Of a stretch of DNA of 64,000 nt, positions 3,398 through 17,965 are shown one piece after another. The position numbers and the translations under genes were made by a program. The stretch comes from Hanleya hanleyi (lineage: Eukaryota; Mollusca; Polyplacophora; Lepidopleurida; Hanleyidae): NCBI GenBank assembly GCA_036873755.1, contig JAVTVY010045365.1, positions 62,001 to 126,000 of the forward strand. Reading direction: 5' to 3'. Under the pieces are notes generated by a model. That model was not told where the DNA came from. It worked only from the letters and a program-made list of their open reading frames with translations, and ran no database searches. Within the stretch, counting starts at the first letter, position 1. The number at the start of each line of letters is the position of its first letter.

Positions 3398-3884
3398 ATA
3401 TAATCCATTAATTTCGCAGCTGTGCCATATATGAATGCAGTAATCAGATGCATGCAGTTGTCGTGGCATTTTTTATTTTGCATTTATGTTAGGTTTTATT
3501 TATTTGATTATTTTTTAATGATACCAGATGCACCCCTTTACGGTTAATGTGAAAACAAATTAAAACTTATATTTTATGGTATGCTCCTATGCAAACAAAT
3601 GACCCGATCCTAGTTCACGAACGGCGAGTCAGCTTGAAATGTCCGGAGAGATCGTTCAGGATATCCCGCATTCGGAAGATACGTAACGAATATGAAAAGA
3701 CCTTGGGTATTATATTTGCATATCGTAAAATATTCCAAGTTCGCCCTGAGTAGTATACTTAGCGTAAATCGAGTATCCTTTCACCCGGATGTAGAGGTCA
3801 TTTGCGGAGGATTTGTGGCGGCGAGGTCAAATAGGTGTCGGCCATTTTGGAAAATGGCGGCTTTTTGTTGCGGCCATTTTGTTT

Positions 3885-4490
3885 TGGCGGCCATTTTCGA
3901 ACGTGGCGGCCATTTTCGAACGTTTTAGCGGCCATTTTCGAACGCGGCGGCCATTTTCGAATGTTTTTGATTGACAGGCGGCCATTTTCGAACGTTTTGG
4001 CGGCCATCTTGGAAAATGGCGGCTTTGGCGGCCATTTTCGAACGTTTTGGCGGCCATTTTCGAACGCGGCGGCCATTTTCGAATGTTTTTGATTGACAGG
4101 CGGCCATTTTCGAACGTGGTGGCCATTTTCGAACGTTTTGGCGGCCATCTTGGAAAATGGCGTCTTTGGCGGCCATTTTCGAACGTTTTGGCGGCCATTT
4201 TCGAACGCGGCGGCCATTTTCGAATGTTTTTGATTGACAGGCGGCCATTTTCGAACGTGTCGGCCATTTTCGAATGCGGCGGCCATTTTCGAATGTTTTT
4301 GATTGACAGGCGGCCATTTTCGAACGTGGCGGCCATTTTCGAACGTTTTGGCGGCCATTTTCGAACGTGGCGGCCATTTTCGAATGTTTTTGATTGACAG
4401 GCGGCCATTTTCGAACGCGGCGGCCATTTTCGAACGTGGCGGCCATTTTCGAACGTGGCGGCCATTTTCGAATGTTTTTAGGCGGCCATC
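3885..4490 (+). promoter_or_regulatory. Upstream activating array: YY1-like and PBX-MEIS-like sites
   Basis: Each 17-22-bp unit contains CCATTTT, which fits the YY1 core CCATNTT. The variant GGCGGCCATCTTGG is an even better YY1 match. The recurrent TGATTGACAG is identical to the usual PBX-MEIS/PREP heterodimer consensus. Units are separated by GCGG, GTGG or GTTTTGG. The array ends 16 bp before the TATA box. The binding proteins are inferred from vertebrate consensus motifs and have not been demonstrated in this organism. Confidence 0.65.
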
Positions 4491-4505
4491 TTGGATAGAA
4501 AAACG

Positions 4506-4545
4506 TATAAAAGGGGCAAATTTTTAAGGGTGGGGTGTATTCATT
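4506..4545 (+). promoter_or_regulatory. Core promoter of the CARD/PC4 gene: TATA box and initiator
   Basis: TATAAAAG at 4506-4513 is followed by TTCATT at 4540-4545, with a likely start near 4543. The same TATA-to-TTCATT arrangement occurs at 8413-8451 (+) and 17239-17200 (-), and a variant lies upstream of RING-1. The predicted 5' leader (about 105 nt) is composed of CCTG/CCAG repeats. Confidence 0.75.
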
Positions 4546-4648
4546 GCACTACCTACCTGACCTGACCTGACCAGCCTGCCTGCCTGCCTGCCTAGCCAGC
4601 CTGACCACTAGCCAGCCTGCCTGACCACTAACCTGCCTGTTTGCCTGT

Positions 4649-5947
4649 ATGAGACGTGGGGAAGCTTTTCATTTTACCAGTGCAAATTCACCAGCCTATT
4701 ACACCGTTTTTGACCAGCCTGAGTCCACAGTCATGGAGTCATACTTTTTAGTGAAGCTTCGAAAGTACCGTGTTCGCCTCATTGATGAGATGCAGCATGT
4801 GGCCGAATTATGTGATCTGCTTATGCAGGAAAACATACTCCTGAAACAGCGTGTCGAAGATATCATGGCTGAGAAAACCACTTCAGCACAAAACAGAGAC
4901 CTCATCGACGGTCTACTGCGCTCTACCCCCTATGCATTTCTAGCCTTCGTGGAGGCGCTGAAGAAGACAGGAAATGAAGAACTAGCAGATCTACTTCAAG
5001 ACCACGTTGTACACGATGATGATATCTTAGCCACGCACATCACCCCAGAGCGTACACCTGCCAAACGCGGTGCACGACCCAAGCGGTGTCGACTAACACC
5101 TTTAGAAATACCTGAGCAAGTGCTTCAGCCAGTACCCCAGCAAGTGCCTGAGCCAGTGAAAGAAGAAGAGGTGCAACTTCCTATGTCTGTGCAGCAGATC
5201 AATAACATTATCCAGCAGGCCTACCAGACAGCCCACACCAACATTTGGGAACTCTCAGCCTATTTGACTGTGAGTGTCAAAGACGAAGAAGTGCATTTTA
5301 ACGTACCGGCCTTTAACGACAGACCAGCTAGGCATATCGCCTTAACGTACGACACCTGGCTAAAACTACAGACCATTGATTCTCCCCTCGATGCAGTCAT
5401 TGACCAGCAGGCACGTGACGAAGTGAAATTTTATGTGGGTGACGACATCTTTGTCAGCTGTGGTACATTCAACGACCAGCTCCTGGTGCATATACGCAAA
5501 TGGAAAATGAGGTTAGATACGCAACAGCGTGTTCCTTGTCCTCAGGGTGTCATCTTGAAAATAACGGCGTGGCGAAAGTTGCAGAGTCTCACAGCTATAA
5601 TTCATGAAGCCCTGTCTGACCAGGTGACTCAGTATATTTGTAAGAAGTACATCGACACATTCCTGGATCATGTCAGACCTCGCATTCGACACTTGCGTAT
5701 CCAAGCGTGTGCAGGCTGTGGGAACAACAGTCCGATAAACATGCATACGTGTGTGGACAATATAATACCATCATACGCGCTGATCACTGAGGCACTACAG
5801 GACGTGACCGAGGAGCAAATTGCCCTGGCGTTGGAAGCTGCCTGCGCTCCCAGAATTCCACGTGAACAGATTGCTACCTACACCTACGTGCACCAGGGGC
5901 GGAAAGACGATGATGAGTTCAAACAAGTCTTGTTGCATAACTATTGA
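4649..5947 (+). CDS. CARD domain + PC4-like ssDNA-binding protein (432 aa)
   Basis: Residues 1-30 are a leader almost identical to that of the RING-1 protein on the opposite strand. Residues 33-117 read as a CARD: a six-helix amphipathic pattern with 'LRKYRVRLIDEM', 'LCDLLMQENIL', 'AEKTTSAQNRDLIDGLL' and a closing 'AFVEALKKTGNEELADLL'. A basic stretch (PAKRGARPKRCR, 137-148) may be a nuclear signal. Residues about 258-318 closely follow the PC4/p15 transcription-coactivator fold (F-VG...FVS...F...LLV-IR-W-M...G-V-L...W-KLQSL). Residues 205-245 look like a degenerate second copy. A Cys cluster (CAGC...HTC, 354-368) follows. CARDs mediate apoptosis and innate-immune signalling and PC4 binds single-stranded DNA. 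A fusion of the two is unusual, and its role as an immune modulator or replication/transcription factor is inference. The start is the first ATG after the predicted cap site. Confidence 0.8.
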   Translation: MRRGEAFHFTSANSPAYYTVFDQPESTVMESYFLVKLRKYRVRLIDEMQHVAELCDLLMQENILLKQRVEDIMAEKTTSAQNRDLIDGLLRSTPYAFLAFVEALKKTGNEELADLLQDHVVHDDDILATHITPERTPAKRGARPKRCRLTPLEIPEQVLQPVPQQVPEPVKEEEVQLPMSVQQINNIIQQAYQTAHTNIWELSAYLTVSVKDEEVHFNVPAFNDRPARHIALTYDTWLKLQTIDSPLDAVIDQQARDEVKFYVGDDIFVSCGTFNDQLLVHIRKWKMRLDTQQRVPCPQGVILKITAWRKLQSLTAIIHEALSDQVTQYICKKYIDTFLDHVRPRIRHLRIQACAGCGNNSPINMHTCVDNIIPSYALITEALQDVTEEQIALALEAACAPRIPREQIATYTYVHQGRKDDDEFKQVLLHNY

Positions 5948-6421
5948 ACATTTCAAGTCTTGTGTTGAAAACATTCAGACATTTACCGTATTCCTACATG
6001 CTACGTTGATGCATAACTATTGAACATTTCAAGTCTTGTGTTGAAAACATTCAGACATTTACCGTATTCCTACATGCTACGGTCATTCAAGCACCTTCAT
6101 AGCGTATAATTGTATTAAAATTCAATACCCAGAGTTTTACTGTGGTGAAGACGTTCATTCTATTGTGTTAATCTTGTTGTATAGATATTGAACATTTTCA
6201 AGTCTTGTTGCATTGAAAACATTCAGATATTATCGTATTCCTACATGCTATGTTCATTCTCTATGTTCATTCTCTATGTTCATTCTATGCGCGTTGAAGT
6301 GCCTTCATAGCGTATAATTGTATTAAAAAATTCAATACCCAGAGTTTTACTGCGGTGAACACATTCATTCTATTGTGTTAATAAAAATAGTAGAAAATTC
6401 AAAAATGAGTGTTAGTGTTCA
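5948..6421 (+). other. 3' UTR of CARD/PC4 gene with direct repeats and AATAAA
   Basis: An approximately 65-80-bp unit (ttgaacatttcaagtcttgt...) occurs three times (from 5944, 6022 and 6187). A 90-bp unit ending 'ctattgtgttaat' occurs twice (about 6083-6172 and 6300-6382). AATAAA at 6380-6385 is the likely poly(A) signal. No histone-type stem-loop lies on this strand before the signal, unlike the neighbouring RING genes. Confidence 0.65.
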
Positions 6422-6464
6422 TTGAGTGTGGTGATGGGAGCTGGTGTTGTGCTTTGAGTTAGAA

Positions 6465-6503
6465 GTTCTCTTTCGAAAACATGGGTTGGCCCTGAAAAGG
6501 GCC
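6465..6503 (-). terminator. Histone-type stem-loop and HDE-like element ending RING-1 mRNA
   Basis: On the minus strand GGCCCTTTTCAGGGCC (6503-6488) forms a 6-bp stem and 4-nt loop, starting 18 nt after the stop codon. It is preceded by CCAAAG and followed by AACCCA. This matches the metazoan replication-dependent histone consensus GGYYCTTTTCAGRRCC with its conserved flanks. A purine-rich CGAAAGAGAAC (6475-6465) lies 12-20 nt further on, where the U7 snRNA-binding downstream element is found in histone genes. Confidence 0.85.
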
Positions 6504-6521
6504 TTTGGAACATGTAAGGGG

Positions 6522-7586
6522 TTACATGGTTGGGACCAGGTCGGGTGGCCCTCTCGCACTACACACCGGGCATTTCAACGCTACGAGTTTACACACTATG
6601 GGGATGATATCACGCGTAGGCTCTGTTATTCGGGCATGTCGGTGTATACAGCCTATACACAAGGCTTGATGGCCACAGGGAAAAATGGCGTATTTGGCGT
6701 AGTTATTACAACATTCCATGCAGCGTAAATATTGTGCTGCTTTGCATTCTGTGTCTGGCGCCAGTCTTCTTGCTATGACAGCAGTGTAGTACACGATGTC
6801 TTCCTGCTGCTGCTGCTGTAAACCTTCCATTTCTTGTTGTTCTTTTTTTCTATTTTCTTGGTCTTTTTGGACATTTTCTGTTGCTTGTGGCTGTAAAATA
6901 CCCATCTCTTCTTCTTTTCTCCTTTCTGTTTCTTGGTCTTGGGCTTGGGTTTGATGTTGTTGTTTGTAGATATCTTCTAGCACGGCGTCAATTTGGTCAA
7001 ATCGTTGATATTCCAGTGTTGTAACATCCGGTGTGACTTGTGCTCCTGGGTGGTCTTCATTATCACCGCCCTGTGGTTGTTGTTCTTTTTTTCTATTTTC
7101 TTGGTCTTGTTGGACATTTTCTGTTGCTTGTGGCTGTAAAATACCCATCTCTTCTTCTTTTCCCCTTTCTGTTTCTTGGTCTTGGGCTTGGGTTTGATGT
7201 TGTTGTTTGTAGATATCTTCTAGCACGGCGTCAATTTGGTCAAATCGTTGATATTCCAGTGCCGTAACATCCGGTGTGACTTGTGCTCCTGGGTGGTCTT
7301 CATTATCGCCGCCCTGTGGTTGTTCTTCATCTTTAAATAGGTCTTGTATAATATCATCCAGCCATGGCTCATCATGTACCATATCGATGTTCTCTAGCGG
7401 TTGTAGTTGATCATCTATCATGAACTCTTGTAACAGGTTGTCAATATCCTCAATATCCATGGTTTGAGCTTCAGCCAGGGATGACTCCATGACTGTGGAC
7501 TCAGGCGCGTCAAAAACGGTGTAATAAGCTGGTGAATTTGCACTGGTAAAATGAAAAGCTTCTCCACGTCTCATACAGACTGGCAT
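6522..7586 (-). CDS. RING-1: C-terminal RING-finger protein with internal duplication (354 aa)
   Basis: The N-terminus (residues 5-34) duplicates the leader of the CARD/PC4 protein. Residues 35-87 are acidic. Residues 88-168 and 169-249 are an almost perfect 81-aa tandem duplication rich in Gln and Glu. A C-terminal RING follows: C289-x2-C292, C304-G-H306, C310-x2-C313, C339-x2-C342. The spacing fits IAP-type/C3HC4 RINGs, so E3 ubiquitin-ligase activity is likely. No BIR repeat is present. Met1 or Met5 could be the start; Met5 begins the conserved leader. A TATA box lies at 7625-7618. The gene converges with the CARD/PC4 gene and ends in a histone-like stem-loop. Confidence 0.8.
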   Translation of the reverse strand: MPVCMRRGEAFHFTSANSPAYYTVFDAPESTVMESSLAEAQTMDIEDIDNLLQEFMIDDQLQPLENIDMVHDEPWLDDIIQDLFKDEEQPQGGDNEDHPGAQVTPDVTALEYQRFDQIDAVLEDIYKQQHQTQAQDQETERGKEEEMGILQPQATENVQQDQENRKKEQQPQGGDNEDHPGAQVTPDVTTLEYQRFDQIDAVLEDIYKQQHQTQAQDQETERRKEEEMGILQPQATENVQKDQENRKKEQQEMEGLQQQQQEDIVYYTAVIARRLAPDTECKAAQYLRCMECCNNYAKYAIFPCGHQALCIGCIHRHARITEPTRDIIPIVCKLVALKCPVCSARGPPDLVPTM

Positions 7587-7594
7587 AATTGTGA

Positions 7595-7625
7595 ATGAAT
7601 CACTAAATACTGCGCGCTATTTATA
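7595..7625 (-). promoter_or_regulatory. Core promoter of RING-1
   Basis: TATAAATA on the minus strand (7625-7618) is followed about 28 nt later by GATTCATTCAC, the same TTCATT initiator as the other element promoters. The predicted 5' leader is only about 10 nt. No CCATTTT array lies upstream, so this promoter differs from the other three. Confidence 0.6.
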
Positions 7626-8090
7626 GTGTAACGCGCGGACGTGAGCGTAATCTTTATATCATATCTTTGCGCTGGCCTAGGCAGAATTTTGTGTGTGTTT
7701 GTTTTGCAACTTTAAATCGATGTGATTTTGCAATAAATGCGAGTGGACGTATAAAATTTATTTCAACTTGAATTAGGGGAACTCATCGTGCAGCATTGAA
7801 AATTTCAGAAGGCTAGCGGCAAGCGAACCCGCTATTTTTAATCCTTTTATCGATTTTTAGACCCGTAACGTTGAGTAGGGTAGTATGGAAAACGCAGTAC
7901 ACTTGAAATAAATCGGTTTTCCTCCGTAAAAATACATCAGGTATTTTATAATGTGACCCTGAAAATTGCAGCACGTTTATCGAAAAGAAAAAGTAGGAAT
8001 TTTTATCGTATTACACCGGCTACGGTAACACAGCGCTATACAGTGTGCAGGCAAATGCGAGTACAGCTATGCATGGCTCTAACATGGCGG
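7626..8090. other. Intergenic spacer between divergent RING genes
   Basis: It is AT-rich with no ORF or RNA gene that I can support. Near its right edge, AACATGGCGG (8079 on) and CCGCCATGTT form an inverted pair around 8079-8130, adding two YY1-like cores just upstream of the internal repeat array. Confidence 0.4.
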
Positions 8091-8136
8091 CTAAGGTTAA
8101 CATGACGGTTAATCCGCCATGTTTTAAAAGGGGTGT

Positions 8137-8451
8137 GATTGACAGGCGGCCATTTTCGAACGCGGCGGCCATTTTCGAACGCGGCGGCCATTTTCGAACG
8201 TGGCGGCCATTTTCGAATGTTTTTAGGCGGCCATTTTCGAACGTGGCGGCCATTTTCGAACACGGCGGCCATTTTCGAATGTTTTTAGGCGGCCATTTTC
8301 GAACGTGGCGGCCATTTTCGAACACGGCGGCCATTTTCGAACACGGCGGCCATTTTCGAACACGGCGGCCATTTTCGAATGTTTTTAGGCGGCCATGTTG
8401 GATAGAAAAACGTATAAAAGGGTCTAATTTTTAGGGGTGGGTGTATTCATT
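8137..8451 (+). promoter_or_regulatory. Internal copy of the terminal-repeat promoter, driving RING-2
   Basis: One TGATTGACAG and roughly a dozen CGGCCATTTTCGAA units lead to GGCGGCCATGTTGG, TATAAAAG (8413-8420) and TTCATT (8446-8451). This is the same order and nearly the same sequence as in the left terminal repeat, in the same orientation. A partial terminal repeat has therefore been copied inside the element and used as a promoter. Confidence 0.8.
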
Positions 8452-8464
8452 GACAACTACAATC

Positions 8465-8726
8465 ATGGTTACAAGACGAAGGTTATTCAACGATCCTAGA
8501 GAACATAGAGAGGTGATTACGAGTGAAGAACATGGCGATGGTATCACAATAATTACAAGCTTGAAGCGGATACACAATATTGCCGATACTACGTTGAGAC
8601 GGCAAAGTCAAGAACAGGACGAAGAGGTCAGGAGGTTGGCAATGGAAGAAGATGAGGATGTACCGACGGATGATGAAGAACTGCCCGACCTAGAGTGGTT
8701 AAACACAGCAAATACAGTGGCTACCG

Positions 8727-8758
<32 letters not shown>

Positions 8759-9115
8759 CCACCACCACCATGCTCTTTACCACCACCATGCTCTTGGACC
8801 GAGGTAACCCGCCTGAACGCGCGCATTATTGAAATGCAGGAAGACATGGATCACGCGGTCGCTGTGAAGTTTAAACTACAACAAGACCTAGATAAGGAAG
8901 AAAGTAAATCAAACTGTAGCGTGTGTACCAACGAGGAAAGCCTGTACGCCCTATTTCCGCGCGGGCATTTATGCCTATGTGAAGAATGCTGGGTGACCCT
9001 AACCTGTATAGGAGACGTGTGCCACTGTACTGAAACGAACCAACAGCATTTAAAGATCAAGTGTCCCGTGTGTAGGAAGCAGGTGTCCGGGGTGAAGAGA
9101 ATCTACCGCTCGTAA
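8465..9115 (+). CDS. RING-2: small RING-finger protein (216 aa from this ATG)
   Basis: The open frame reaches back to 8441, but the predicted cap site is near 8449. The first usable ATG is therefore at 8465 (product starts MVTRRRLF). An acidic segment is followed by a Thr-then-Pro run encoded by a CAA/CCA microsatellite (about residues 88-105), a short coiled region, then a RING. Ligands seen, in the 224-residue frame, are C159-x2-C162, H176, C180-x2-C183, C208-x2-C211. The position that is Cys in RING-1 (FPCGH) is Arg here (FPRGH, 174), so one zinc ligand is missing or replaced by a neighbouring Cys. The role is probably ubiquitin-ligase-like, with reduced certainty for that reason. Confidence 0.75.
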
Positions 9116-9137
9116 AAGTGTCGTAACACTTTCCAAA

Positions 9138-9176
9138 GGCCCTTTTCAGGGCCAACCCATGTTTTCGAAAGAGAAC
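9138..9176 (+). terminator. Histone-type stem-loop and HDE-like element ending RING-2 mRNA
   Basis: GGCCCTTTTCAGGGCC at 9138-9153 begins 23 nt after the stop codon. It is framed by CCAAA and AACCCA exactly as in metazoan histone mRNAs, and CGAAAGAGAAC follows at 9166-9176. The block is the inverted counterpart of 6465-6503. No AATAAA lies between the stop codon and the stem-loop. Confidence 0.88.
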
Positions 9177-9329
9177 TTCTAACTGAAAGCACAAAAATAA
9201 CACCAAGTCCTGCACATGCACATACACACACCTAGGTAACAATAGGTAAATTACACTGAGTCAATGGAAAAACTTCCTACTAACAGCGCCCAGGTATTAG
9301 TATCAATGTACGGTAAACCGAATAATGCC

Positions 9330-10490
9330 CGTCGCTGATTGGTGGCCTACAAGGTGCCTACGCCGAGGTCCGCGCGACCACCCTTCCTGGGTTAACTTAC
9401 AATCCACATATTTTGCACGAAAATTCACCTAGTATCAATTCCTACGTTAAATGATTGCATGTATTGAGATAACATTACGGTTGGCCCTGAAAAGGGTCTT
9501 TGGACCATGTACACCACTGTATTGGCGCCATTCCTGGGTGTCGTCAGAATCTCTTCATTTTGCACCAAATTCACACTGGTCAATTCCTATGTTAAATGAT
9601 TGCGTGTATTGAGATAACATTAGAGTCGATGCTGATTGGTGGTCTACAAGGTGTCTACGCCGAGGTCCGCGCGACCACCCTTCCTGGGTTAACTTACAAT
9701 CCACATATTTTGCACGAAAATTTACCTAGTGTCAATTCCTACGTTAAATGATTGCATGTATTGAGATAACATTACGGTTGGCCCTGAAAAGGGTCTTTGG
9801 ACCATGTACACCACTGTATTGGCGCCATTCCTGGATGTCGTCAGAATCCCTTCATTTTGCACCAAATTCACACTGGTCAATTCCTAGGTTAAATGATTAC
9901 GTGTATTGAGATAACATTACGGTTGGCCCTGAAAAGGGTCTTTGGACCATGTACAGCACTGTATTGGCGCCATTCCTGGGTGTCGTCAGAATCTCTTCAT
10001 TTTGCACCAAATTCACACTGGTCAATTCCTATGTTAAATGATTGCGTGTATTGATAACATTAGAGTCGATGCTGATTGGTGGTCTACAAGGTGCCTACGC
10101 CGAGGTCCGCGCAACCACCCTTCCTGGGTTAACTTACAATCCACATATTTTGCACGAAAATTCACCTAGTGTCAATTACTACGTTAAATGATTGCATGTA
10201 TTGAGATAACATTACGGTTGGCCCTGAAAAGGGTCTTTGGACCATGTACACCACTGTATTGGCGCCATTCCTGGGTGTCGTCAGAATCTCTTCATTTTGC
10301 ACCAAATTCACACTGGTCAATTCCTAGGTTAAATGATTGCGTGTATTGAGATAACATTAGAGTCGATGCTGATTGGTGGTCTACAAGGTGTCTACGCCGA
10401 GGTCCGCGCGACCACCCTTCCTGGGTTAACTTACAATCCACATATTTTGCACCAAATTTTTGCTTGGTTGGCCCTAAAACACTGAGAAAA
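9330..10490. repeat. Central 295-bp dimeric repeat array, left block
   Basis: Units start with a degenerate stem-loop (GGCCCTGAAAAGGGTC, first at 9483; others near 9780, 9925 and 10220), spaced about 295 or 145 bp. Each 295-bp unit is two related half-units, each containing 'caattcctaNgttaaatgattgc' and 'tgtattgagataacatta'. One half-unit has GGCGCC and the other a CCAAT box (gctgattggt). No coding capacity. The module content (gene end, then CCAAT) resembles the flanks of the small gene in the middle of the array. Confidence 0.85.
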
Positions 10491-10520
10491 AAACCCTGTG
10501 TGTTGGAAGGGCTAGGGGTT

Positions 10521-10708
10521 GGCCCTGAAAAGGGCCGTTGAGGTGGGAGCAGGGATTGTTTTTTGGAGTTGGAGATTGGTAATACTATAGAATATAGAGG
10601 ACATGATGTATGACCTGATTTGAATTGAATGTGCCAAGTTAGAAGTTCTCCCTTTCGGAGTAATTGGTTGGCCCTGAAAAGGGCCTTTGGTTGGCCCTGA
10701 AAAGGGCC
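10521..10708 (-). terminator. Three histone-type stem-loops downstream of the small ORF
   Basis: Perfect GGCCCTTTTCAGGGCC hairpins on the minus strand lie at 10708-10693, 10685-10670 and 10536-10521. The first is preceded by CAAC and the second by CCAAAG; both flanks are known from histone genes. A purine-rich CGAAAGGGAGAACT (10657-10644) follows the second and resembles a histone downstream element. They lie just 3' of the 10.7-11.2-kb gene. Confidence 0.8.
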
Positions 10709-10738
10709 GTTGAAGTCAATTTGTTTACCCTGTTTTAT

Positions 10739-11212
10739 TCAGGAGGAGTTTGCCTGTCTACTCCGTAAAATCGCTGACGGAAAAGTACCGGTGCGGCTGT
10801 AATGTGTACCGGTGTTGTGGCTCATCGTGGTCAGAAATGGGCATCTCTTGAGAAATGGGCATCTCTTGGAGGAAATTGGCGGGTGGAATTTCCCCGATGT
10901 CCACGAATTCCGGCTCTTGTTGTTGTGTTGGTGGTGGTGGTGGTGGTGGTGGGTGCAATTCTTCAAATGTGTTAGCCAGGCCTCATCACTGACCGTCCTG
11001 GCCAGCACGATGAGCGCACGGAGATTCTGGGCTGCCCCCGGATTGACGTTATTGTTGTCGATGTGCCGGCACCATCCTCTAATCTCTTCCAGCCAAAAAT
11101 CCTTGACAGCCTTCACCATCGCCTTCCTCTGTCGCCGGGCAATCTCCCGCTGTATTTCCATCATTCTTCCCGAAGCCTTTGTTGTGGACATCTTCGCTAC
11201 GCGGTTGTTCAT
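10739..11212 (-). CDS. Small protein of unknown function with histone-like gene architecture
   Basis: The frame opens at 11221 but the first ATG is at 11212 (MNNRVAKMSTTK). The first 90 residues are basic and probably helical (MEIQREIARRQRKAMVKAV, then ...NLRALIVLARTVSDEAWL). A CAC/CCA microsatellite at about 10928-10955 then gives a His run. In the next frame the same DNA reads as a Pro run followed by an acidic, plausible C-terminus (EPEFVDIGEI...EMPIS) ending at 10758. An indel in the microsatellite may therefore have changed the frame. I do not recognise the family. Upstream are a TATA box and five CCAAT boxes. Downstream are histone-like stem-loops. Confidence 0.5.
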   Translation of the reverse strand: MNNRVAKMSTTKASGRMMEIQREIARRQRKAMVKAVKDFWLEEIRGWCRHIDNNNVNPGAAQNLRALIVLARTVSDEAWLTHLKNCTHHHHHHHQHNNKSRNSWTSGKFHPPISSKRCPFLKRCPFLTTMSHNTGTHYSRTGTFPSAILRSRQANSS

Positions 11213-11249
11213 CTTCTTCAATATGTATACGAGTTGTTGGTCTGTGAAA

Positions 11250-11420
11250 GGTGAATGGAATGGCGCTGACCACGCTCCCGCTGGCTTTATACTGAAATAC
11301 AGTATATTTTCATTGGCTGTTTCAATGGGGTGATGCTGGCTTCATTGGTTCTTTTTAGCGATAGCGGATTGGCTCTTTTTATAGACAGCGGATTGGCTCT
11401 TATTCGAGTCTGCTGATTGG
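11250..11420 (-). promoter_or_regulatory. CCAAT-rich promoter of the small unknown gene
   Basis: On the minus strand TATAAAG lies at 11291-11285, followed by a CATTCCATTCACC initiator-like region near 11260-11250. Upstream are five CCAAT boxes (complements at 11312, 11344, 11368, 11392 and 11416), three of them separated by 24 bp. Multiple CCAAT boxes are typical of S-phase and histone promoters bound by NF-Y. Confidence 0.7.
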
Positions 11421-11439
11421 TCAATATAGTGGACCCCAA

Positions 11440-12740
11440 CCCTTCCTGGGTTAATTTACAATCCTTCATTTTGCACCAAAATTCGCACTGGCCAATTCTC
11501 ATGTTAAATGATTGCGTGTATTGATAACATTAGAGTGACATTACGGTTGGCCCTGAAAAGGGTCTTTGGAACATGTACACCACTGTATTGGCGCCATTCC
11601 TGGGTGTCGTCAGAATCCCTTCATTTTGCACCAAATTCACACTAGTCAATTCCTAGGTTAAATGATTGCGTGTATTGATAACATTAGAGTCGATGCTGAT
11701 TGGTGGTCTACAAGGTGCCTACACCGAGGTCCGCGCGACCACCCTTCCTGGGTTAACTTACAACCCACATATTTTGCACGAAAATTCACCTAGTGTCAAT
11801 TCCTACGTTAAATCATTGCATGTATTGAGATAACATTAGAGTCCATGCTGATTACAACATTACGGTTGGCCCTGAAAAGGGTCTTTGGAACATGTACACC
11901 ACTGTATTGGCGCCATTCCTGGGTGTCGTCAGAATCTCTTCATTTTGCACCAAATTCACACTGGTCAATTCCTATGTTAAATGATTGCGTGTATTGATAA
12001 CATTAGAGTCGATGCTGATTGGTGGTCTACAAGGTGCCTACACCGAGGTCCGTGCGACCACCCTTCCTGGGTTAACTTACAATCCACATATTTTGCACGA
12101 AAATTCACCTAGTGTCAATTCCTACGTTAAATGATTACGTGTATTGAGATAACATTACGGTTGGCCCTGAAAAGGGTCTTTGGAACATGTACACCACTGT
12201 ATTGGCGCCATTCCTGGATGTCGTCAGAATCTCTTCATTTTGCACCAAATTCACACTGGTCAATTCCTATGTTAAATGATTGCGTGTATTGAGATAACAT
12301 TAGAGTCGATGCTGATTGGTGGTCTACAAGGTGTCTACGCCGAGGTCCGCGCGACCACCCTTCCTGGGTTAACTTACAATCCACATATTTTGCACGAAAA
12401 TTCACCTAGTCTCAATTCCTACGTTAAATGATTGCATGTATTGAGATAACATTACGGTTGGCCCTGAAAAGGGTCTTTGGACCATGTACACCACTGTATT
12501 GGCGCCATTCCTGGGTGTCGTCAGAATCTCTTCATTTTGCACCAAATTCACACTGGTCAATTCCTATGTTAAATGATTGCGTGTATTGATAACATTTGAG
12601 TCGATGCTGATTGGTGTTCTACAAGGTGTCTACGCCGAGGTCCGCGCGACCACCCTTCCTGGGTTAACTTACAATCCACATATTTTGCACCAAATTCATC
12701 TAGTGTCAATTCCTACGTTAAATGATTGCGTGTATTGATA
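11440..12740. repeat. Central 295-bp dimeric repeat array, right block
   Basis: It is the continuation of the array, with degenerate stem-loops starting near 11549, 11868, 12163 and 12460. The half-unit phrases are the same as in the left block, with only a few per cent divergence. The small gene at 10.5-11.4 kb interrupts the array. Confidence 0.85.
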
Positions 12741-13045
12741 ACATTACAGCCCGAATCATCACGGACTTTCACGAAGGGTGAGGGTGGAATAAAAACTATA
12801 ACGTATACGGGTACGGATAGAGAGATGTGTGAAAAAAAAACCTATAACGTGTACGGCTATGGACTAGGGTTTTTTAATATACACGAGTCATCACGGACTT
12901 TCACATATGAAAAAACACAAAAATGATGGTTTTTTGACTTTTATTATTTAAGTCAAACAAGAATGTATAGAATATGTACAAATAGAATACAGGTGGTATG
13001 TACAATAGAATAGTAGTGGTATATACAAGTGGTACAAAAAAGTTC
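12741..13045 (-). other. Spacer downstream of PolB and tRNA, with AATAAA
   Basis: A phrase 'catcacggactttcac' occurs at about 12758 and 12889, and 'ctataacgt.tacgg' at about 12797 and 12842, forming short direct repeats. On the minus strand AATAAA lies at 12945-12940, about 240 nt beyond the PolB stop codon. It is the first plausible poly(A) signal for PolB, which would place the tRNA inside the PolB 3' UTR. Confidence 0.5.
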
Positions 13046-13131
13046 TGTCAGGAGTAGGATTCGAACCTACGTCCGGCATTTCGCCGACCAGCACTTAATA
13101 CCGGCGCCTTAGACCACTCGGCCATCCTGAC
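13046..13131 (-). tRNA. tRNA-Leu(UAA), class II, inside the element
   Basis: Acceptor stem GTCAGGA/TCCTGAC is a perfect 7 bp with discriminator A. The D-arm contains GGCCGAGTGGTCTAAGGC (A box). The anticodon loop is ATTAAGT, giving UAA. A long variable arm (CGGC-GAAAT-GCCG) and T-arm GTAGG-TTCGAAT-CCTAC (B box) complete a class II leucine tRNA. It has no intron and no encoded CCA. A TTTTTT pol III terminator follows at 13041-13036. All stems are intact, so it is probably functional. It lies 57 nt past the PolB stop codon on the same strand. Confidence 0.93.
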
Positions 13132-13187
13132 TTTTACAGTTTTTAACTGGTGTATCAACAGTCATATAGTGTGTGTTCGACATTTTT

Positions 13188-16100
13188 TCACAAGTCCAAG
13201 TAAGTGGTGCTCACACCATCGGCCAGTACTTTCCGTTTCGAGTAAAAGAAAGTAAAGGCGTCTCGTTGCTGGATGTACGTCCGCATCTGGTGGTCCACTA
13301 CCCGAAATCCGCGGTTAGTTCCACTCGCACTGGCCTGGCTTTGCAGCACGTTCAAGTACAAGGCTTTGTCGATGTTGGGATCGCGCCGGTTCACCCCTTT
13401 GCAGCTAAACTTATTTTCGTCTCCCCCGTAACAGTAATACGTCTTGGAGGAGAGAGCAATCATAGCATCTCCACTCCACTCCAGCTTGAAGAGGCCCGGC
13501 GTACGCTTATCGTACTGGTATTGGTCACGTGCAGGTAACCACTGGTCCCGTTCCGCTTCATACTCTGCCCGTACCTCCGGTTTCACCAGGGACTCCCAAT
13601 CTGCATTAGAGACGGCCATGTAGGCCGAGTCCGTATCCATCTCCATGAGTTGCCAGTCTGATGCATTAAAATACACAACCATGAAATCATAGAGAAACTG
13701 CAGCATCCTCAGCTTGGCCACATGGTATACCATACATCCAATCTGCAGGGGTAGGTTGTAACGGATAGTCTTCTTGGCTGAACTGACTTCATACGTGTCG
13801 TCATCGATGACCTCCACGGAGCGAAACAGAGGAGAATTCACTTTTTTGCGGGCTTGTTTGGTTGTACAAATGTTCACGTTCACGTGCTTATCCTGATTCG
13901 TGACTGTTTTTCCATAGTAACCATTGCCCGTCAATTTCCAAGATTGACCGATGATGGCCTTACTCGGGTCTTGGTCACCTTGACGACGGGCCGACGTCAC
14001 GATGTCGGCATTCTCCGCAAAACAAGCGTCGGGTACGTACTGTATCACTTGGTATATTTTGGTAATTTCCAAACCGTGGCTCATGTACCACTGCAGTAAG
14101 GGCGTGCCCAGCAAGATTTTCTCGGCCCACATACTACCAATCAACATCCGACGAGGTCGAGGCAAACACTCGTGTTGCTTCGCATAGGCCCCCATGGTGT
14201 CTCCAATATCATCCCGACCCACCAGCGTGTTCTTAAAGATGGGCGGGCACTGGGCAAAGAGGGGTTTGAGAGTATCGGGAACATGCAAATCACATTCGAC
14301 AAAGCCGTAGAGGGCCCCCGAACGAATGGCGTCGAACATCTGTGGCAGACTCAGGAGTCGCCGACGACTCAACGGGTACTCGCGCTCTTTTAGGAAACGC
14401 CGTAAATGGGGTAGGGCCTGGCACATGGTGTGAAATTCACACTCCCACATTTCGATGAGATGGTATCCTCTCTCTTTGACGTAATCTCCGTTCTCCTGCA
14501 CTTCTTCCCGTAATTCTTCTGCCGATTTCCCACGTCGTTCGTTGAAGCGTCCAGCGCTGAAATGGCATCCGTGGCCGTGCCAGTAACACCCATAAAATTG
14601 AAATACGGTCGGTGTCCTACCCACCAGGGCAAACCCATCGACGGGGAGTCGACGATCTCCTATCCGCTTCTCTGTGGCGTTGGTCTGGTGTCGTATATAA
14701 ATTGCCCGTCGATAGGCTTCCCAATCCAACCACTGATCAGCCAGATGCTTGTAGGGCGTGCGTTGCGGTGTAAAATGCCGACCTTCCGCCAACCAACGTG
14801 TATAATGGCCACTGGGCATAGGTTGGGCCAGAGACCACAGGTACAAGGCATTCGCATCGAAACCGATGATCTTAGCACAGGGTTTTCCACTGGGGAGAGT
14901 AGTGACGTCCTTCTCGTGATAACGGTGAAAAATAAGACTCGGTCCGCCGACAATGTTCTGCTTTAGACAATCATGCATGTCTGCATCTTTTTGCTGTATC
15001 AGTGAGAAGTACGTAGGACACTCTTGAAAAAGATGGCGAAGCGCCAGACCCGGTAAACTCAAGCACTCCTTGAAGATGTCGACGTGCATCTCGCGACGAA
15101 AGAGTTGAACCATTTTCTCGGTCGCTTCCAGGAAAGGAACCACATCTAAGTTATTATACCATATCAGGAAATCTCGCAAGGTCTGCATATGTTGATCGTT
15201 CCATACCTGCTGTAGTTCCCGGTACGTGTCTTCCGGACATTCCACTTGCTTCAAATCATCAAAGAAGGCATCCCGGGGTGGCAACTGTGTTTCCTGCAAA
15301 CGGTCGAGCGTTGATATATACGTGTAAGGGAACCTCCCTTTGGTTTGTGCACAGTTATACGCCTTGACCCACTGATCATAGCTACAATTAGGAGCTAAGT
15401 AGTTCCGTACATCCAGGAAATGAAGTGATGTGGTAGTGAGGGCCATATGATTATTGATTTTCTTGATGATGGACTTGATGGTATTCGCCTGGGCCAAGTA
15501 GGGATAGAGAAATTGCTTGACCATGTTCAAGTCATATTGCCCCGAGTTGAAACCCAGCACCGGTAACTGACCTAGATATTGTAGGAAGCGCACTTTCAAT
15601 TTCTGCGCATACGGTTTCGGTAAAGGCACATCCTGCGACTGCATGGACTCCGGCTCCGACTCGGACTCTTCATCGTCACTAAACGCTACACCCGGTATAG
15701 GAATCCGATCGGTGAGCTGGTCCAGTACGTCCTGGAACTTGGACACCAACAATTTCGTACTGGCCGCACTGACTTCCTCTAAATACTCCATCATGCAGGT
15801 GATCAACTCATGGGAATCCCCGGTAGACACGAAACAGACCGGTGCATCGTCATAGCCAGGTACGTTGCTGGAAATGCTGACACTCAGGGGAATATGGCGC
15901 TGCGTCCACTGCGTTTTCGCTGAAAACAGGTCCATGGGTTCCAATAGGGCCTCAAAATCGTAACACGCCCGGTAGGGAAAATAACGGTCCGCCTCCGGTA
16001 TGATGAGACCCTCATCGGCCAGGGCCTCGAAAATAGTAGGCGTATTATGATACACACCATCCGGATAGACTCGCTTGACACTGTTGTCACAACGCTTCTC

Positions 16101-17072
16101 GTGTCGATGTAAGTCGGTGGAACGGTCAAACACCCGATGGCATTGGGCACAACTGTAAGACTGGGCGTACTGGCTCATATTGCACATCAGCGAAAAATGA
16201 CTCACGCCATTGTAGTTGAAGACATTGACTTCCATCGTAGAAGCATACCGTTCTGTTGAACGACGAACCAATTCAGTCACAAATGTATCCTCCTCGCATC
16301 GTAATCGGTATACCATGATATTGATGTTGAACAGTGTTTCCACATCATCCAAATTGTTGAACGGGACTCCACGGAAGTGCCGTTCATCCAAGTCTTGCTG
16401 CTCTAAGTACCGCTCCCAATAGTCATTGGCCACTTTGTCACAACCGTGTGGATTACACTGGTCCAGATGCACGGCCAAACACAGAAACAGACATTTCCGG
16501 TCTTTGTAGGGTCCCTTCATCCCTCCCGTTAATGGATGCAGTCCATGTCGATGAAGCAGCCAAGGGGGTAGTAGTACAGGAGCACCGATAGGGTGATTTC
16601 TCATTTTTGTGACGAAAAATGTGACGTTGGTCACCCTTTCCACAAGCCAGTTGGTATTGGGGCGTTGCAACCGGGTCCATTCCAATGGGTCCAACGTAGT
16701 CAATTGGTCGATGAGTGGCTGCAGGGAAATGGCATTCGTCACCGTGATTGGCTTGTCAAACACATACGTATTATTGCTGGGATAATAATACCGCAGCTGG
16801 TCTGTCTCTTTATGGCGAAGGATGTATCCAAAAGTGAGATTCAACTTGAAGGCTGTGACCTGGTCTGTGAAAATGTTCTCCGCATAAGTAGACAAATACG
16901 TAAGATCCTGCAGTCGAAAGTTATACAAGTCCAATAGACGACGGTCACGGTGAAAACAATGGCGTATGGTAGCCCAGTGTCGTTGATAAATCTCCCTCAC
17001 ACGCTCGTCTTGAGGCAAGACTTCAACCGGAGTTACTGCTGGGTCCCAGGGCAAATCTTCTTCACGTCTCAT
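13188..17072 (-). CDS. Protein-primed family B DNA polymerase (1294 aa)
   Basis: Domain order: an N-terminal region about 185-300 with 'DRKCLFLCLAVH' and a distal 'VSHFSL' that resembles an OTU-like cysteine-protease fold; a CxxC...H...C zinc finger (308-328); 3'-5' exonuclease motifs DFEALL (372-377), FNSGQYDLN (508-516) and WYNNLD (638-643); then the polymerase with motif A DANALYLWSL (739-748), motif B KLTGNGYYGK (1046-1055), motif C MDTDS (1145-1149) and SSKTYY (1208-1213). An insert at 809-836 (LPVDGF...FQFYGCYWHGHGC) is the Vsr/PD-(D/E)XK-like segment usual in this polymerase group. All catalytic acidic residues are present. It would replicate the element from protein-primed ends. Its promoter is the right terminal repeat. 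Confidence 0.93.
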   Translation of the reverse strand: MRREEDLPWDPAVTPVEVLPQDERVREIYQRHWATIRHCFHRDRRLLDLYNFRLQDLTYLSTYAENIFTDQVTAFKLNLTFGYILRHKETDQLRYYYPSNNTYVFDKPITVTNAISLQPLIDQLTTLDPLEWTRLQRPNTNWLVERVTNVTFFVTKMRNHPIGAPVLLPPWLLHRHGLHPLTGGMKGPYKDRKCLFLCLAVHLDQCNPHGCDKVANDYWERYLEQQDLDERHFRGVPFNNLDDVETLFNINIMVYRLRCEEDTFVTELVRRSTERYASTMEVNVFNYNGVSHFSLMCNMSQYAQSYSCAQCHRVFDRSTDLHRHEKRCDNSVKRVYPDGVYHNTPTIFEALADEGLIIPEADRYFPYRACYDFEALLEPMDLFSAKTQWTQRHIPLSVSISSNVPGYDDAPVCFVSTGDSHELITCMMEYLEEVSAASTKLLVSKFQDVLDQLTDRIPIPGVAFSDDEESESEPESMQSQDVPLPKPYAQKLKVRFLQYLGQLPVLGFNSGQYDLNMVKQFLYPYLAQANTIKSIIKKINNHMALTTTSLHFLDVRNYLAPNCSYDQWVKAYNCAQTKGRFPYTYISTLDRLQETQLPPRDAFFDDLKQVECPEDTYRELQQVWNDQHMQTLRDFLIWYNNLDVVPFLEATEKMVQLFRREMHVDIFKECLSLPGLALRHLFQECPTYFSLIQQKDADMHDCLKQNIVGGPSLIFHRYHEKDVTTLPSGKPCAKIIGFDANALYLWSLAQPMPSGHYTRWLAEGRHFTPQRTPYKHLADQWLDWEAYRRAIYIRHQTNATEKRIGDRRLPVDGFALVGRTPTVFQFYGCYWHGHGCHFSAGRFNERRGKSAEELREEVQENGDYVKERGYHLIEMWECEFHTMCQALPHLRRFLKEREYPLSRRRLLSLPQMFDAIRSGALYGFVECDLHVPDTLKPLFAQCPPIFKNTLVGRDDIGDTMGAYAKQHECLPRPRRMLIGSMWAEKILLGTPLLQWYMSHGLEITKIYQVIQYVPDACFAENADIVTSARRQGDQDPSKAIIGQSWKLTGNGYYGKTVTNQDKHVNVNICTTKQARKKVNSPLFRSVEVIDDDTYEVSSAKKTIRYNLPLQIGCMVYHVAKLRMLQFLYDFMVVYFNASDWQLMEMDTDSAYMAVSNADWESLVKPEVRAEYEAERDQWLPARDQYQYDKRTPGLFKLEWSGDAMIALSSKTYYCYGGDENKFSCKGVNRRDPNIDKALYLNVLQSQASASGTNRGFRVVDHQMRTYIQQRDAFTFFYSKRKVLADGVSTTYLDL

Positions 17073-17098
17073 GCTTTCGTCTAATACAAGCTGGTAGC

Positions 17099-17965
17099 CA
17101 AACAGGCAGACAGGCTGGCTAGTGGTCAGGCAGGCTAGTGGGCAGGCAGGCAGGCAGGCACGCAGGCAGGCTGGTCAGGTCAGGTCAGGTAGGTAGTGCA
17201 ATGAATACACCCCACCCTTAAAAATTTGCCCCTTTTATACGTTTTTCTACCCAAGATGGCCGCCTAAAAACATTCGAAAATGGCCGCCACGTTCGAAAAT
17301 GGCCGCCGCGTTCGAAAATGGCCGCCTGTCAATCAAAAACATTCGAAAATGGCCGCCACGTTCGAAAATGGCCGCCAAAACGTTCGAAAATGGCCGCCAC
17401 GTTCGAAAATGGCCGACACGTTCGAAAATGGCCGCCTGTCAATCAAAAACATTCGAAAATGGCCGCCGCGTTCGAAAATGGCCGCCAAAACGTTCGAAAA
17501 TGGCCGCCAAAGCCGCCATTTTCCAAGATGGCCGCCAAAACGTTCGAAAATGGCCGCCACGTTCGAAAATGGCCACCTGTCAATCAAAAACAGTCGAAAA
17601 TGGCCGCCGCGTTCGAAAATGGCCACCAAAACGTTCGAAAATGGCCGCCACGTTCGAAAATGGCCGCCAAAGCCACCATTTTCCAAGATGGCCGCCAAAA
17701 CGTTCGAAAATGGCCGCCACGTTCGAAAATGGCCGCCTGTCAATCAAAAACATTCGAAAATGACCGCCGCGTTCGAAAATGGCCGCCAAAACGTTCGAAA
17801 ATGGCCGCCACGTTCGAAAATGGCCGCCAAAACAAAATGGCCGCAACAAAAAGCCGCCATTTTCCAAAATGGCCGACACCTATTTGACCTCGCCGCCACA
17901 AATCCTCCGCAAATGACCTCTACATCCGGGTGAAAGGATACTCGATTTACGCTAAGTATACTACT
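17099..17965 (-). repeat. Right terminal inverted repeat of the 14.2-kb element
   Basis: It is the inverted copy of 3749-4643, including the same CGGCCATTTTCGAA array, TGATTGACAG sites and CCTG-rich leader. It differs by substitutions and by loss or gain of repeat units. It ends GTATACTACT-3' and is followed by GGCCTG. Confidence 0.9.
17200..17239 (-). promoter_or_regulatory. Core promoter of the DNA polymerase gene
   Basis: TATAAAAG on the minus strand (17239-17232) and TTCATT (17205-17200) place the cap site near 17202. This gives a 5' leader of about 130 nt to the PolB ATG at 17072, the first ATG in the leader. Confidence 0.75.

What the first reader, a model, noticed from the sequence alone, without database searches (positions are those of the whole stretch)
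6465..10708. A mobile element that ends its mRNAs like histone genes
Downstream of three element genes, in coding orientation, lie exact 16-nt GGCCCTTTTCAGGGCC hairpins. Those after the RING genes have the histone flanks CCAAA before and AACCCA after, plus a purine-rich AAAGAGAA or GAAAGGGAGAA element 12-20 nt further on. This is the full signature of replication-dependent histone pre-mRNA 3' processing (SLBP and U7 snRNP). I know of no DNA transposon or Polinton described with it. If functional, these mRNAs would lack poly(A) and accumulate in S phase, when the element's own polymerase could replicate its DNA.
Basis: partly seen in the sequence, partly recalled or inferred. Interest (0 to 1): 0.95.

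Follow-up and report, generated by a model that had tools for sequence, protein, structure and literature searches.

The report
Transposon genes with histone-type mRNA ends
A virus-like mobile DNA family in this animal genome ends several of its genes with the same RNA hairpin and downstream signal that the animal's own histone genes carry, so it probably makes some of its messages with the histone 3'-end machinery, although no RNA was examined.

Summary
The element (3749-17965; long inverted repeats, polymerase B) has exact GGCCCTTTTCAGGGCC hairpins 18, 22 and 30 nt after the stops of two RING-like genes and a 157-aa gene. Rfam's Histone3 model matches three gene ends (E 1.3e-6, 1.3e-6, 3.1e-6). 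In the window's own genome CCAAA+GGCYCTTTTCAGRGCC occurs 926 times, reversed control 0. The host's histone genes carry the same module: 14 of 14 fetched H3 ends (157 matches found) have a histone-type hairpin, and two share the 17-nt downstream element with the window's RING genes; four H1 gene ends are built alike. In 17 of 17 partner RING genes picked because they lacked the exact pattern, a recognisable hairpin follows, 12 with a perfect stem, 4 damaged. The hairpin differs less (0.083 per site) than synonymous sites (0.290). CARD-PC4 (25 of 25) and polymerase (3 of 3) copies have no sense hairpin within 700 nt but have A[AT]TAAA. No RNA data exist, no U7 RNA was found, and relatives L004 and L005 lack the hairpin. 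S-phase expression remains inference.

The parts
3749..17965 (.). the mobile element, 14.2 kb, AGTAGT...ACTACT termini, flanked by GCCCTG / GGCCTG (5 of 6 bases alike)
   Evidence: inverted arms and end sequences
3749..4593 (+). left terminal inverted repeat with arrays of GGCGGCCATTTTCGAACG
17152..17965 (-). right terminal inverted repeat
4649..5947 (+). CARD gene with a weak PC4-like match, 432 aa; poly(A)-signal class (AATAAA at 6380), no hairpin
   Evidence: Pfam (CARD 51.7 bits, cut-off 23.9; PC4 22.2, cut-off 25); 25 of 25 copies
6522..7586 (-). RING-like gene R1, 354 aa
   Evidence: Pfam (21.4 bits, cut-off 27)
6488..6503 (-). histone-type stem-loop, 18 nt after R1 stop
6463..6508 (-). 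complete Histone3 module of R1 (CCAAA, stem-loop, spacer, downstream element)
   Evidence: Rfam RF00032, 33.9 bits
8465..9115 (+). RING-like gene R2, 216 aa
   Evidence: Pfam (26.8 bits, cut-off 27)
9138..9153 (+). histone-type stem-loop, 22 nt after R2 stop
9133..9178 (+). complete Histone3 module of R2
   Evidence: Rfam RF00032, 33.9 bits
10739..11212 (-). gene G3, 157 aa, no Pfam match
10693..10708 (-). first of two tandem stem-loops, 30 nt after G3 stop
10646..10690 (-). second G3 stem-loop with downstream element GAAAGGGAGAACTTCTAAC
   Evidence: Rfam RF00032, 32.9 bits
10521..10536 (-). fifth exact stem-loop, no purine-rich downstream element
   Evidence: 24.6 bits
9334..10458 (-). ~297-bp tandem array with four GACCC hairpins (second stem pair lost)
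11538..12748 (-). second block of the same array with four GACCC hairpins
13188..17072 (-). DNA polymerase B gene (viral/organellar type), 1294 aa; AATAAA at 12945, no intact hairpin before the array
   Evidence: Pfam DNA_pol_B_2; 36 scored copies
13046..13131 (-). tRNA-Leu(TAA) gene directly after the polymerase gene
   Evidence: 1061 exact 45-mers genome-wide

Best explanation
The element family carries, after its RING genes and the G3 gene, working copies of its host's replication-dependent histone 3'-processing module. Transcripts of these genes are most likely bound by SLBP at the hairpin, paired to U7 snRNA at GAAAGRG..ACTTCTAAC, cut about 5 nt after the stem and left without poly(A), while the CARD-PC4 and polymerase genes use ordinary cleavage and polyadenylation. 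Shown here: the module, its position and orientation, its match to host H3 and H1 genes, its recurrence, its slow change, and the split between two gene classes. Inferred from knowledge of histone mRNA: SLBP and U7 binding, absence of poly(A), high levels in S phase and in dividing or embryonic cells, and capture from a host histone gene.
For: Rfam Histone3 matches at three gene ends. Host H3: 14 gene ends fetched of 157 matches found; 14 of 14 have a histone-type hairpin, 11 the exact 16-mer. GAAAGAGAACTTCTAAC is identical in H3 ends L113 and L123 and in window R1 and R2; for these two ends none of 300 shuffles that keep the first 7 nt scores as well. Host H1: four gene ends (two in one contig) with hairpins 30-34 nt after the stop; two of the proteins were checked and pass the Pfam linker-histone model. 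926 places genome-wide, reversed control 0. Of 116 hairpins in the fetched stretches 96 follow R1, R2 or G3 homologues on the same strand within 400 nt and 4 follow H1. Partner test: 17 of 17 R2 genes keep a recognisable hairpin. R2 genes look selected (pN 0.071, pS 0.290) and the hairpin differs at 0.083 per site against 0.301 for the adjacent spacer. Stem pair 4 is C-G in 96, T-A in 2, T-G in 2 and C-A in 0 of the 100 places listed, though the pattern allowed all four. Published: cleavage 4-5 nt after the stem-loop, and AAAGAG as purine core of a mouse HDE (PMC7026596, passages).
Against: No RNA data. No convincing host U7 snRNA: a U7-like pattern gave 10 hits against 8 for its reversed control, a stricter one gave 0, three hits looked at lacked U7 features, and the Rfam U7 search did not complete. 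Pairing with a recalled mouse U7 is no better than shuffles. 4 of the 17 partner hairpins have damaged stems and the eight array copies in the window have lost the second pair. L004 and L005 have no hairpin. 31 of 75 R1/R2 copies have an A[AT]TAAA within 240 nt after the hairpin, and 10 of 28 within 430 nt; no shuffle control was made for these signals, and by my count only 17 of 25 CARD copies have one within 240 nt, so the poly(A) contrast is clear only over longer stretches. A small second hairpin over the downstream element might hinder U7. The loci were picked by the exact hairpin.
Confidence: 0.8

Rival explanations
1. Hitch-hiking module: a histone 3' end was captured once and spread inside the element and with it, without being used; the element's messages end at downstream poly(A) sites.
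For: The module occurs as a near-identical block of about 64 nt after two otherwise unlike genes, decayed hairpins sit in tandem arrays, 4 of 17 partner hairpins are damaged, and some copies have A[AT]TAAA shortly after the hairpin.
Against: The hairpin differs far less than synonymous sites or the neighbouring spacer; it keeps its place 25-33 nt after the R2 coding match in 17 of 17 partner genes; no sense hairpin lies within 700 nt after CARD-PC4 in 25 of 25 copies.
Confidence: 0.12
2. Structural role other than U7 cleavage: hairpin plus second hairpin act as mRNA stabiliser, transcription terminator or DNA-level signal for replication of the element.
For: A possible second hairpin over the downstream element with matched partner changes (mean energy -4.11 against -3.28 with partners dealt anew, 0 of 1000; relatedness not controlled); tandem arrays of degenerate copies.
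Against: The same arrangement stands after host histone H3 and H1 genes; placement after particular genes in coding sense.
Confidence: 0.06
3. The RING genes are host genes with histone-type ends that were swept up by the element rather than element genes.
For: Histone-type ends are a host feature.
Against: R1 and R2 recur as neighbours in many copies, lie between the TIRs with the polymerase gene and diverge within the family to 28% identity in local matches.
Confidence: 0.02

Closest known systems
Replication-dependent histone pre-mRNA 3' processing (SLBP, U7 snRNP; Rfam RF00032)
   Same: 16-nt hairpin, CCAAA and ACC flanks, purine-rich element 13-14 nt downstream, short distance from stop; downstream element shared with this host's H3 genes
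   Different: the genes are not histones but RING-like and other genes of a mobile element; RNA behaviour untested
Polinton/Maverick elements
   Same: PolB of the viral/organellar type, long TIRs, AG...CT ends (that these ends are typical is recalled), flanks that look like a 6-bp duplication
   Different: no integrase, packaging ATPase, protease or capsid gene found in this copy; histone-type gene ends
Adintovirus-like contig L004 (QGON01000029.1)
   Same: PolB 40% identical over nearly its whole length
   Different: has an ATPase, an rve integrase and a protease-like ORF (the last below the Pfam cut-off), capsid genes inferred only; no RING or CARD match among the eight L004 ORFs scanned; no histone hairpin

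Membership tests
Histone-type 3' processing signal | conserved 16-nt stem-loop with CCAAA / ACC flanks | tested here: met
Histone-type 3' processing signal | purine-rich downstream element at the right distance | tested here: met
   GAAAG 13 nt after the stem at three gene ends; 12-14 nt in the 47 distinct modules that fit the script's expression, which allowed 8-18
Histone-type 3' processing signal | same signals as the host's own histone genes | tested here: met
   H3 14 of 14 fetched, four H1 gene ends
Histone-type 3' processing signal | complementarity to host U7 snRNA | tested here: inconclusive
   no convincing U7 found; Rfam U7 search did not complete (last try)
Histone-type 3' processing signal | mRNA ends 4-6 nt after stem without poly(A); SLBP-bound; S-phase regulated | not testable with these tools
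   no RNA data
Polinton/Maverick | protein-primed DNA polymerase B | tested here: met
   DNA_pol_B_2; that it is protein-primed is inferred from the family
Polinton/Maverick | long terminal inverted repeats | tested here: met
   longest arms 97-99% complementary
Polinton/Maverick | 6-bp target site duplication (recalled) | tested here: inconclusive
   GCCCTG against GGCCTG, 5 of 6
Polinton/Maverick | rve integrase, FtsK-type ATPase, protease, capsid proteins | tested here: not met
   no Pfam match among the five large ORFs; of L004's eight proteins only PolB matched the window
Adintovirus | capsid, ATPase, integrase and protease genes with PolB | tested here: not met

The most novel reading that the evidence does not exclude
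A lineage of PolB mobile elements has sorted its genes into two 3'-end classes: RING and G3 genes finish with the host's own histone processing module, so that they are expressed like histones in S-phase and embryonic cells, while the polymerase and CARD-PC4 genes are polyadenylated. As far as the searches show, it would be the first mobile element or virus reported to use the SLBP/U7 pathway for its own messages; L042 and L087 suggest that a second element family in the same genome does the same.
Probability: 0.6. Interest if true: 0.92.

Novelty: new variant of a known kind. Interest (0 to 1): 0.86.

Why it matters
The histone 3'-end pathway is, to my recollection, regarded as reserved for histone mRNAs. 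A mobile family with hundreds of hairpin places that taps it would show a parasite tying part of its gene expression to the host's DNA-replication programme, would be missed by poly(A)-selected RNA-seq, and would give natural non-histone substrates for SLBP and U7. Many copies with differing modules provide a ready-made mutational series.

Tried and rejected
Chance: rejected by shuffles and the reversed control. IMG/VR contigs: three loci hold the hairpin with AA before and A after (two of them near-identical); the contexts I read show no CCAAA and no histone-type downstream element. PolB and capsid-candidate scans of IMG/VR and a tblastn of PolB against phage records confirmed no relative. 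CARD-PC4 protein: no homologue at E 0.001. Host identity: tyrosine-recombinase hits point to molluscs at up to 58% identity but do not decide. U7 snRNA: patterns at chance level or zero, three candidates rejected by eye and folding. Pairing to a recalled mouse U7 5' end was no better than shuffles (354 and 385 of 2000). The second hairpin over the downstream element is suggestive only. The first script for selection failed and was rerun. A genome-wide count of hairpin plus downstream element did not complete. The post hoc probability printed (1e-4) is not used because the spacer was chosen after looking.

Dropped or partial sets: of the 926 places one search listed 100; 97 of these were covered by fetched stretches (three near contig ends were skipped). 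L013 was dropped as a duplicate of L014, L089 as the window itself. The partner test used 20 of 32 R1 places without a listed R2 place; L093, L098 and L107 had no RING match and are not among the 17. One of the 17, L092, has a stop inside the stretch compared. In one search, 16 of 116 hairpins had no assigned gene; on inspection L042 and L087 follow another RING gene, L020 (twice) and L056 a 158-aa coiled-coil ORF, L016 (twice) and L037 G3-like ORFs; L009, L010 (four), L018 (two) and L026 remain unresolved.
Full report
What is there. The element spans 3749-17965. The longest inverted arms are 97-99% complementary and contain arrays of GGCGGCCATTTTCGAACG. It begins AGTAGT and ends ACTACT, flanked by GCCCTG and GGCCTG, which looks like a slightly decayed 6-bp duplication. 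Genes: CARD with a weak PC4-like match (4649-5947 +), RING-like R1 (6522-7586 -), RING-like R2 (8465-9115 +), G3 of 157 aa (10739-11212 -) and a 1294-aa DNA polymerase B (13188-17072 -), with a tRNA-Leu gene after the polymerase. The RING and PC4 matches are below Pfam's cut-offs in the window; CARD and polymerase are above. No integrase, ATPase, protease or capsid gene was found in it.

The hairpins. Five exact and eight one-mismatch copies of GGCCCTTTTCAGGGCC are present; 13 matches against 0.17 expected. R1, R2 and G3 each have one 18, 22 and 30 nt after the stop, in coding sense. The full signature with GAAAG 13 nt after the stem occurs at exactly three places in the window, one at each of these gene ends, and the 13-mer AGAACTTCTAACT occurs only there. 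The proteins of R1 and R2 are alike over one stretch of 60 residues at 35%, while their 3' modules are identical over 54 nt. Rfam's Histone3 model, an independent yardstick, gives E 1.3e-6, 1.3e-6 and 3.1e-6, each a little under the family's gathering score.

Comparison with the host's histone genes. The window lies in a 2.48-Gb genome. A search with human-like H3 gave 157 matches. I fetched the ends of 14, several of them identical cluster copies. All 14 have a histone-type hairpin shortly after the stop: 11 are the exact 16-mer of the element, one has a T-G loop-closing pair and two a changed loop. By my count, AACCA follows the stem in 13 of 14, GAAAGRG is present in 13 of 14, AAGCAC in 11 of 14, and CCGAAAGRG(A)AACTTCTAAC in 6 of 14 (exact without the extra A in 4); five read GAAAGAGAACTTCGYCAATTAAGCAC instead. 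Window R1 and R2 read CGAAAGAGAACTTCTAAC..AAAGCACAA; the first 17 nt from GAAAG are identical to those of two H3 ends. Four hairpins in the pattern sample follow linker-histone H1 genes, 30-34 nt after the stop; two of these proteins were checked with Pfam. The element module is thus of the host's own histone type. Whether it was captured from a histone gene or shaped by the same U7 RNA cannot be told apart here.

Recurrence and constraint. CCAAA plus GGCYCTTTTCAGRGCC occurs 926 times in the genome, reversed control 0. 100 places were listed and 97 of them fetched; the stretches hold 116 hairpins, of which 40 follow R1, 37 R2, 19 G3 and 4 H1 homologues, 16 unassigned. Because these were picked by the exact pattern, I fetched 20 further stretches (of 32 R1 places whose contig had no listed R2 place) where the partner R2 gene was to be expected. 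17 held an R2 gene and 17 of 17 have the hairpin 25-33 nt after the coding match: 10 exact with a CCAAC flank, 2 with a compensated stem (GGCTCT/AGAGCC), 1 with that stem and a changed last base, 4 with damaged stems. Over these 17 and the window copy (153 pairs, last 70 codons) synonymous difference is 0.290, non-synonymous 0.071, hairpin 0.083 and adjacent spacer 0.301 per site. Non-independence of pairs was not corrected. At least 36 polymerase copies at 92-100% identity exist, the window's included, 24 of 36 without internal stop; 36 of 39613 candidates were scored, so this is a lower bound.

Two classes of gene ends. In 25 of 25 CARD-PC4 copies whose end was in hand and 3 of 3 polymerase copies there is no sense hairpin within 700 nt but at least one A[AT]TAAA. 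One of the three polymerase copies, L087, is a remote relative (24% identity). R1 and R2 differ: 18 of 28 have no such signal in the 430 nt after the hairpin, whereas every CARD copy has one by then. Over 240 nt the contrast is weak (31 of 75 R1/R2 with a signal; 17 of 25 CARD, counted). No shuffle control was made for the signals. G3 in the window has both, with AATAAA at its stop.

Mechanism. From what is established for histone mRNA (cleavage 4-5 nt after the stem-loop by U7 snRNP, HDE pairing, purine core AAAGAG; PMC7026596, passages; ends 3-6 nt after the hairpin in C. elegans, PMC1924863, passages), the RING and G3 messages should be cut near the end of AACCCA or AACCAA and lack poly(A). 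SLBP binding, U7 pairing and S-phase accumulation are inferred. Because the polymerase is in the poly(A) class, the benefit is more likely timely supply of the RING and G3 proteins in replicating cells than of polymerase; this last step is speculation.

Against. No RNA was seen. U7 was not found. Pairing with a recalled mouse U7 was no better than shuffles. L004 and L005, PolB-bearing contigs filed under a tubeworm-symbiont genome, have no hairpin, so the trait is not general to the PolB clade. Decayed hairpins fill the arrays and occur in 4 of 17 partner genes. A small hairpin over the downstream element, with partner changes that go together more than expected when dealt anew, is unexplained; relatedness was not controlled.

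Literature. Searches for histone stem-loop, SLBP, U7 snRNP or histone downstream element together with transposon, Polinton, virus and similar words (listings with the starts of abstracts only) showed no report of a mobile element or virus that uses histone-type 3' ends; where hundreds or thousands of papers matched only the best 12 to 25 were listed. In an adintovirus paper and a paper on related viruses the words histone, hairpin, stem-loop and polyadenylation lead to nothing on this (PMC11071296, PMC11071308; find passages). Passages of PMC9756948 were also seen. The library lacks most subscription papers.

Noticed in passing
13046-13131 (-): tRNA-Leu(TAA) gene 56 nt after the polymerase stop and followed by a T run; an exact 45-mer of it occurs 1061 times in the genome, reversed control 0; how many lie in elements was not counted. 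A tRNA in such numbers, placed where RNase P could cut the polymerase transcript, deserves its own study.
   Followed up: partly
L042, L087: A different, shorter RING gene with the same hairpin about 20 nt after its stop; L087 also holds pieces of a remote PolB and of a packaging-ATPase-like protein, so a second element family may use histone-type ends.
   Followed up: partly
6463-6508, 9133-9178 and copies L006-L088: Possible second small hairpin with a GAAA-type loop over the downstream element.
   Followed up: partly
9116-9131: R2 3' UTR holds a further inverted repeat AAGTGTCGTAACACTT before the histone hairpin, largely kept in the 17 partner copies.
   Followed up: no
window 4649-9115 compared with L007, L008, L011, L090: Gene order varies: in the window the CARD gene faces R1, in several other copies a CARD gene lies next to R2.
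   Followed up: no
3749-4593, 8145-8396, 17152-17965: Dense arrays of GGCGGCCATTTTCGAACG in both TIRs and before R2, reminiscent (recalled) of YY1-type sites, next to TATA-like sequences.
   Followed up: no
4649-5947: A CARD domain joined to a weak PC4-like match in one protein of a mobile element; no homologue at E 0.001. Its first codons are shared with R1 (inverted repeat I20).
   Followed up: no
L028, L060, L084, L086: Two kinds of host linker histone H1 gene, one SPKK-rich and sperm-like in look, both with histone-type ends.
   Followed up: partly
L004: An adintovirus-like contig with PolB, ATPase, integrase and a protease-like ORF is filed in a bacterial symbiont genome record of a tubeworm, probably from the animal.
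   Followed up: partly
61462-62862 (-): Open tyrosine-recombinase gene (DUF3504 family) with its best named relatives in bivalves and other molluscs.
   Followed up: partly
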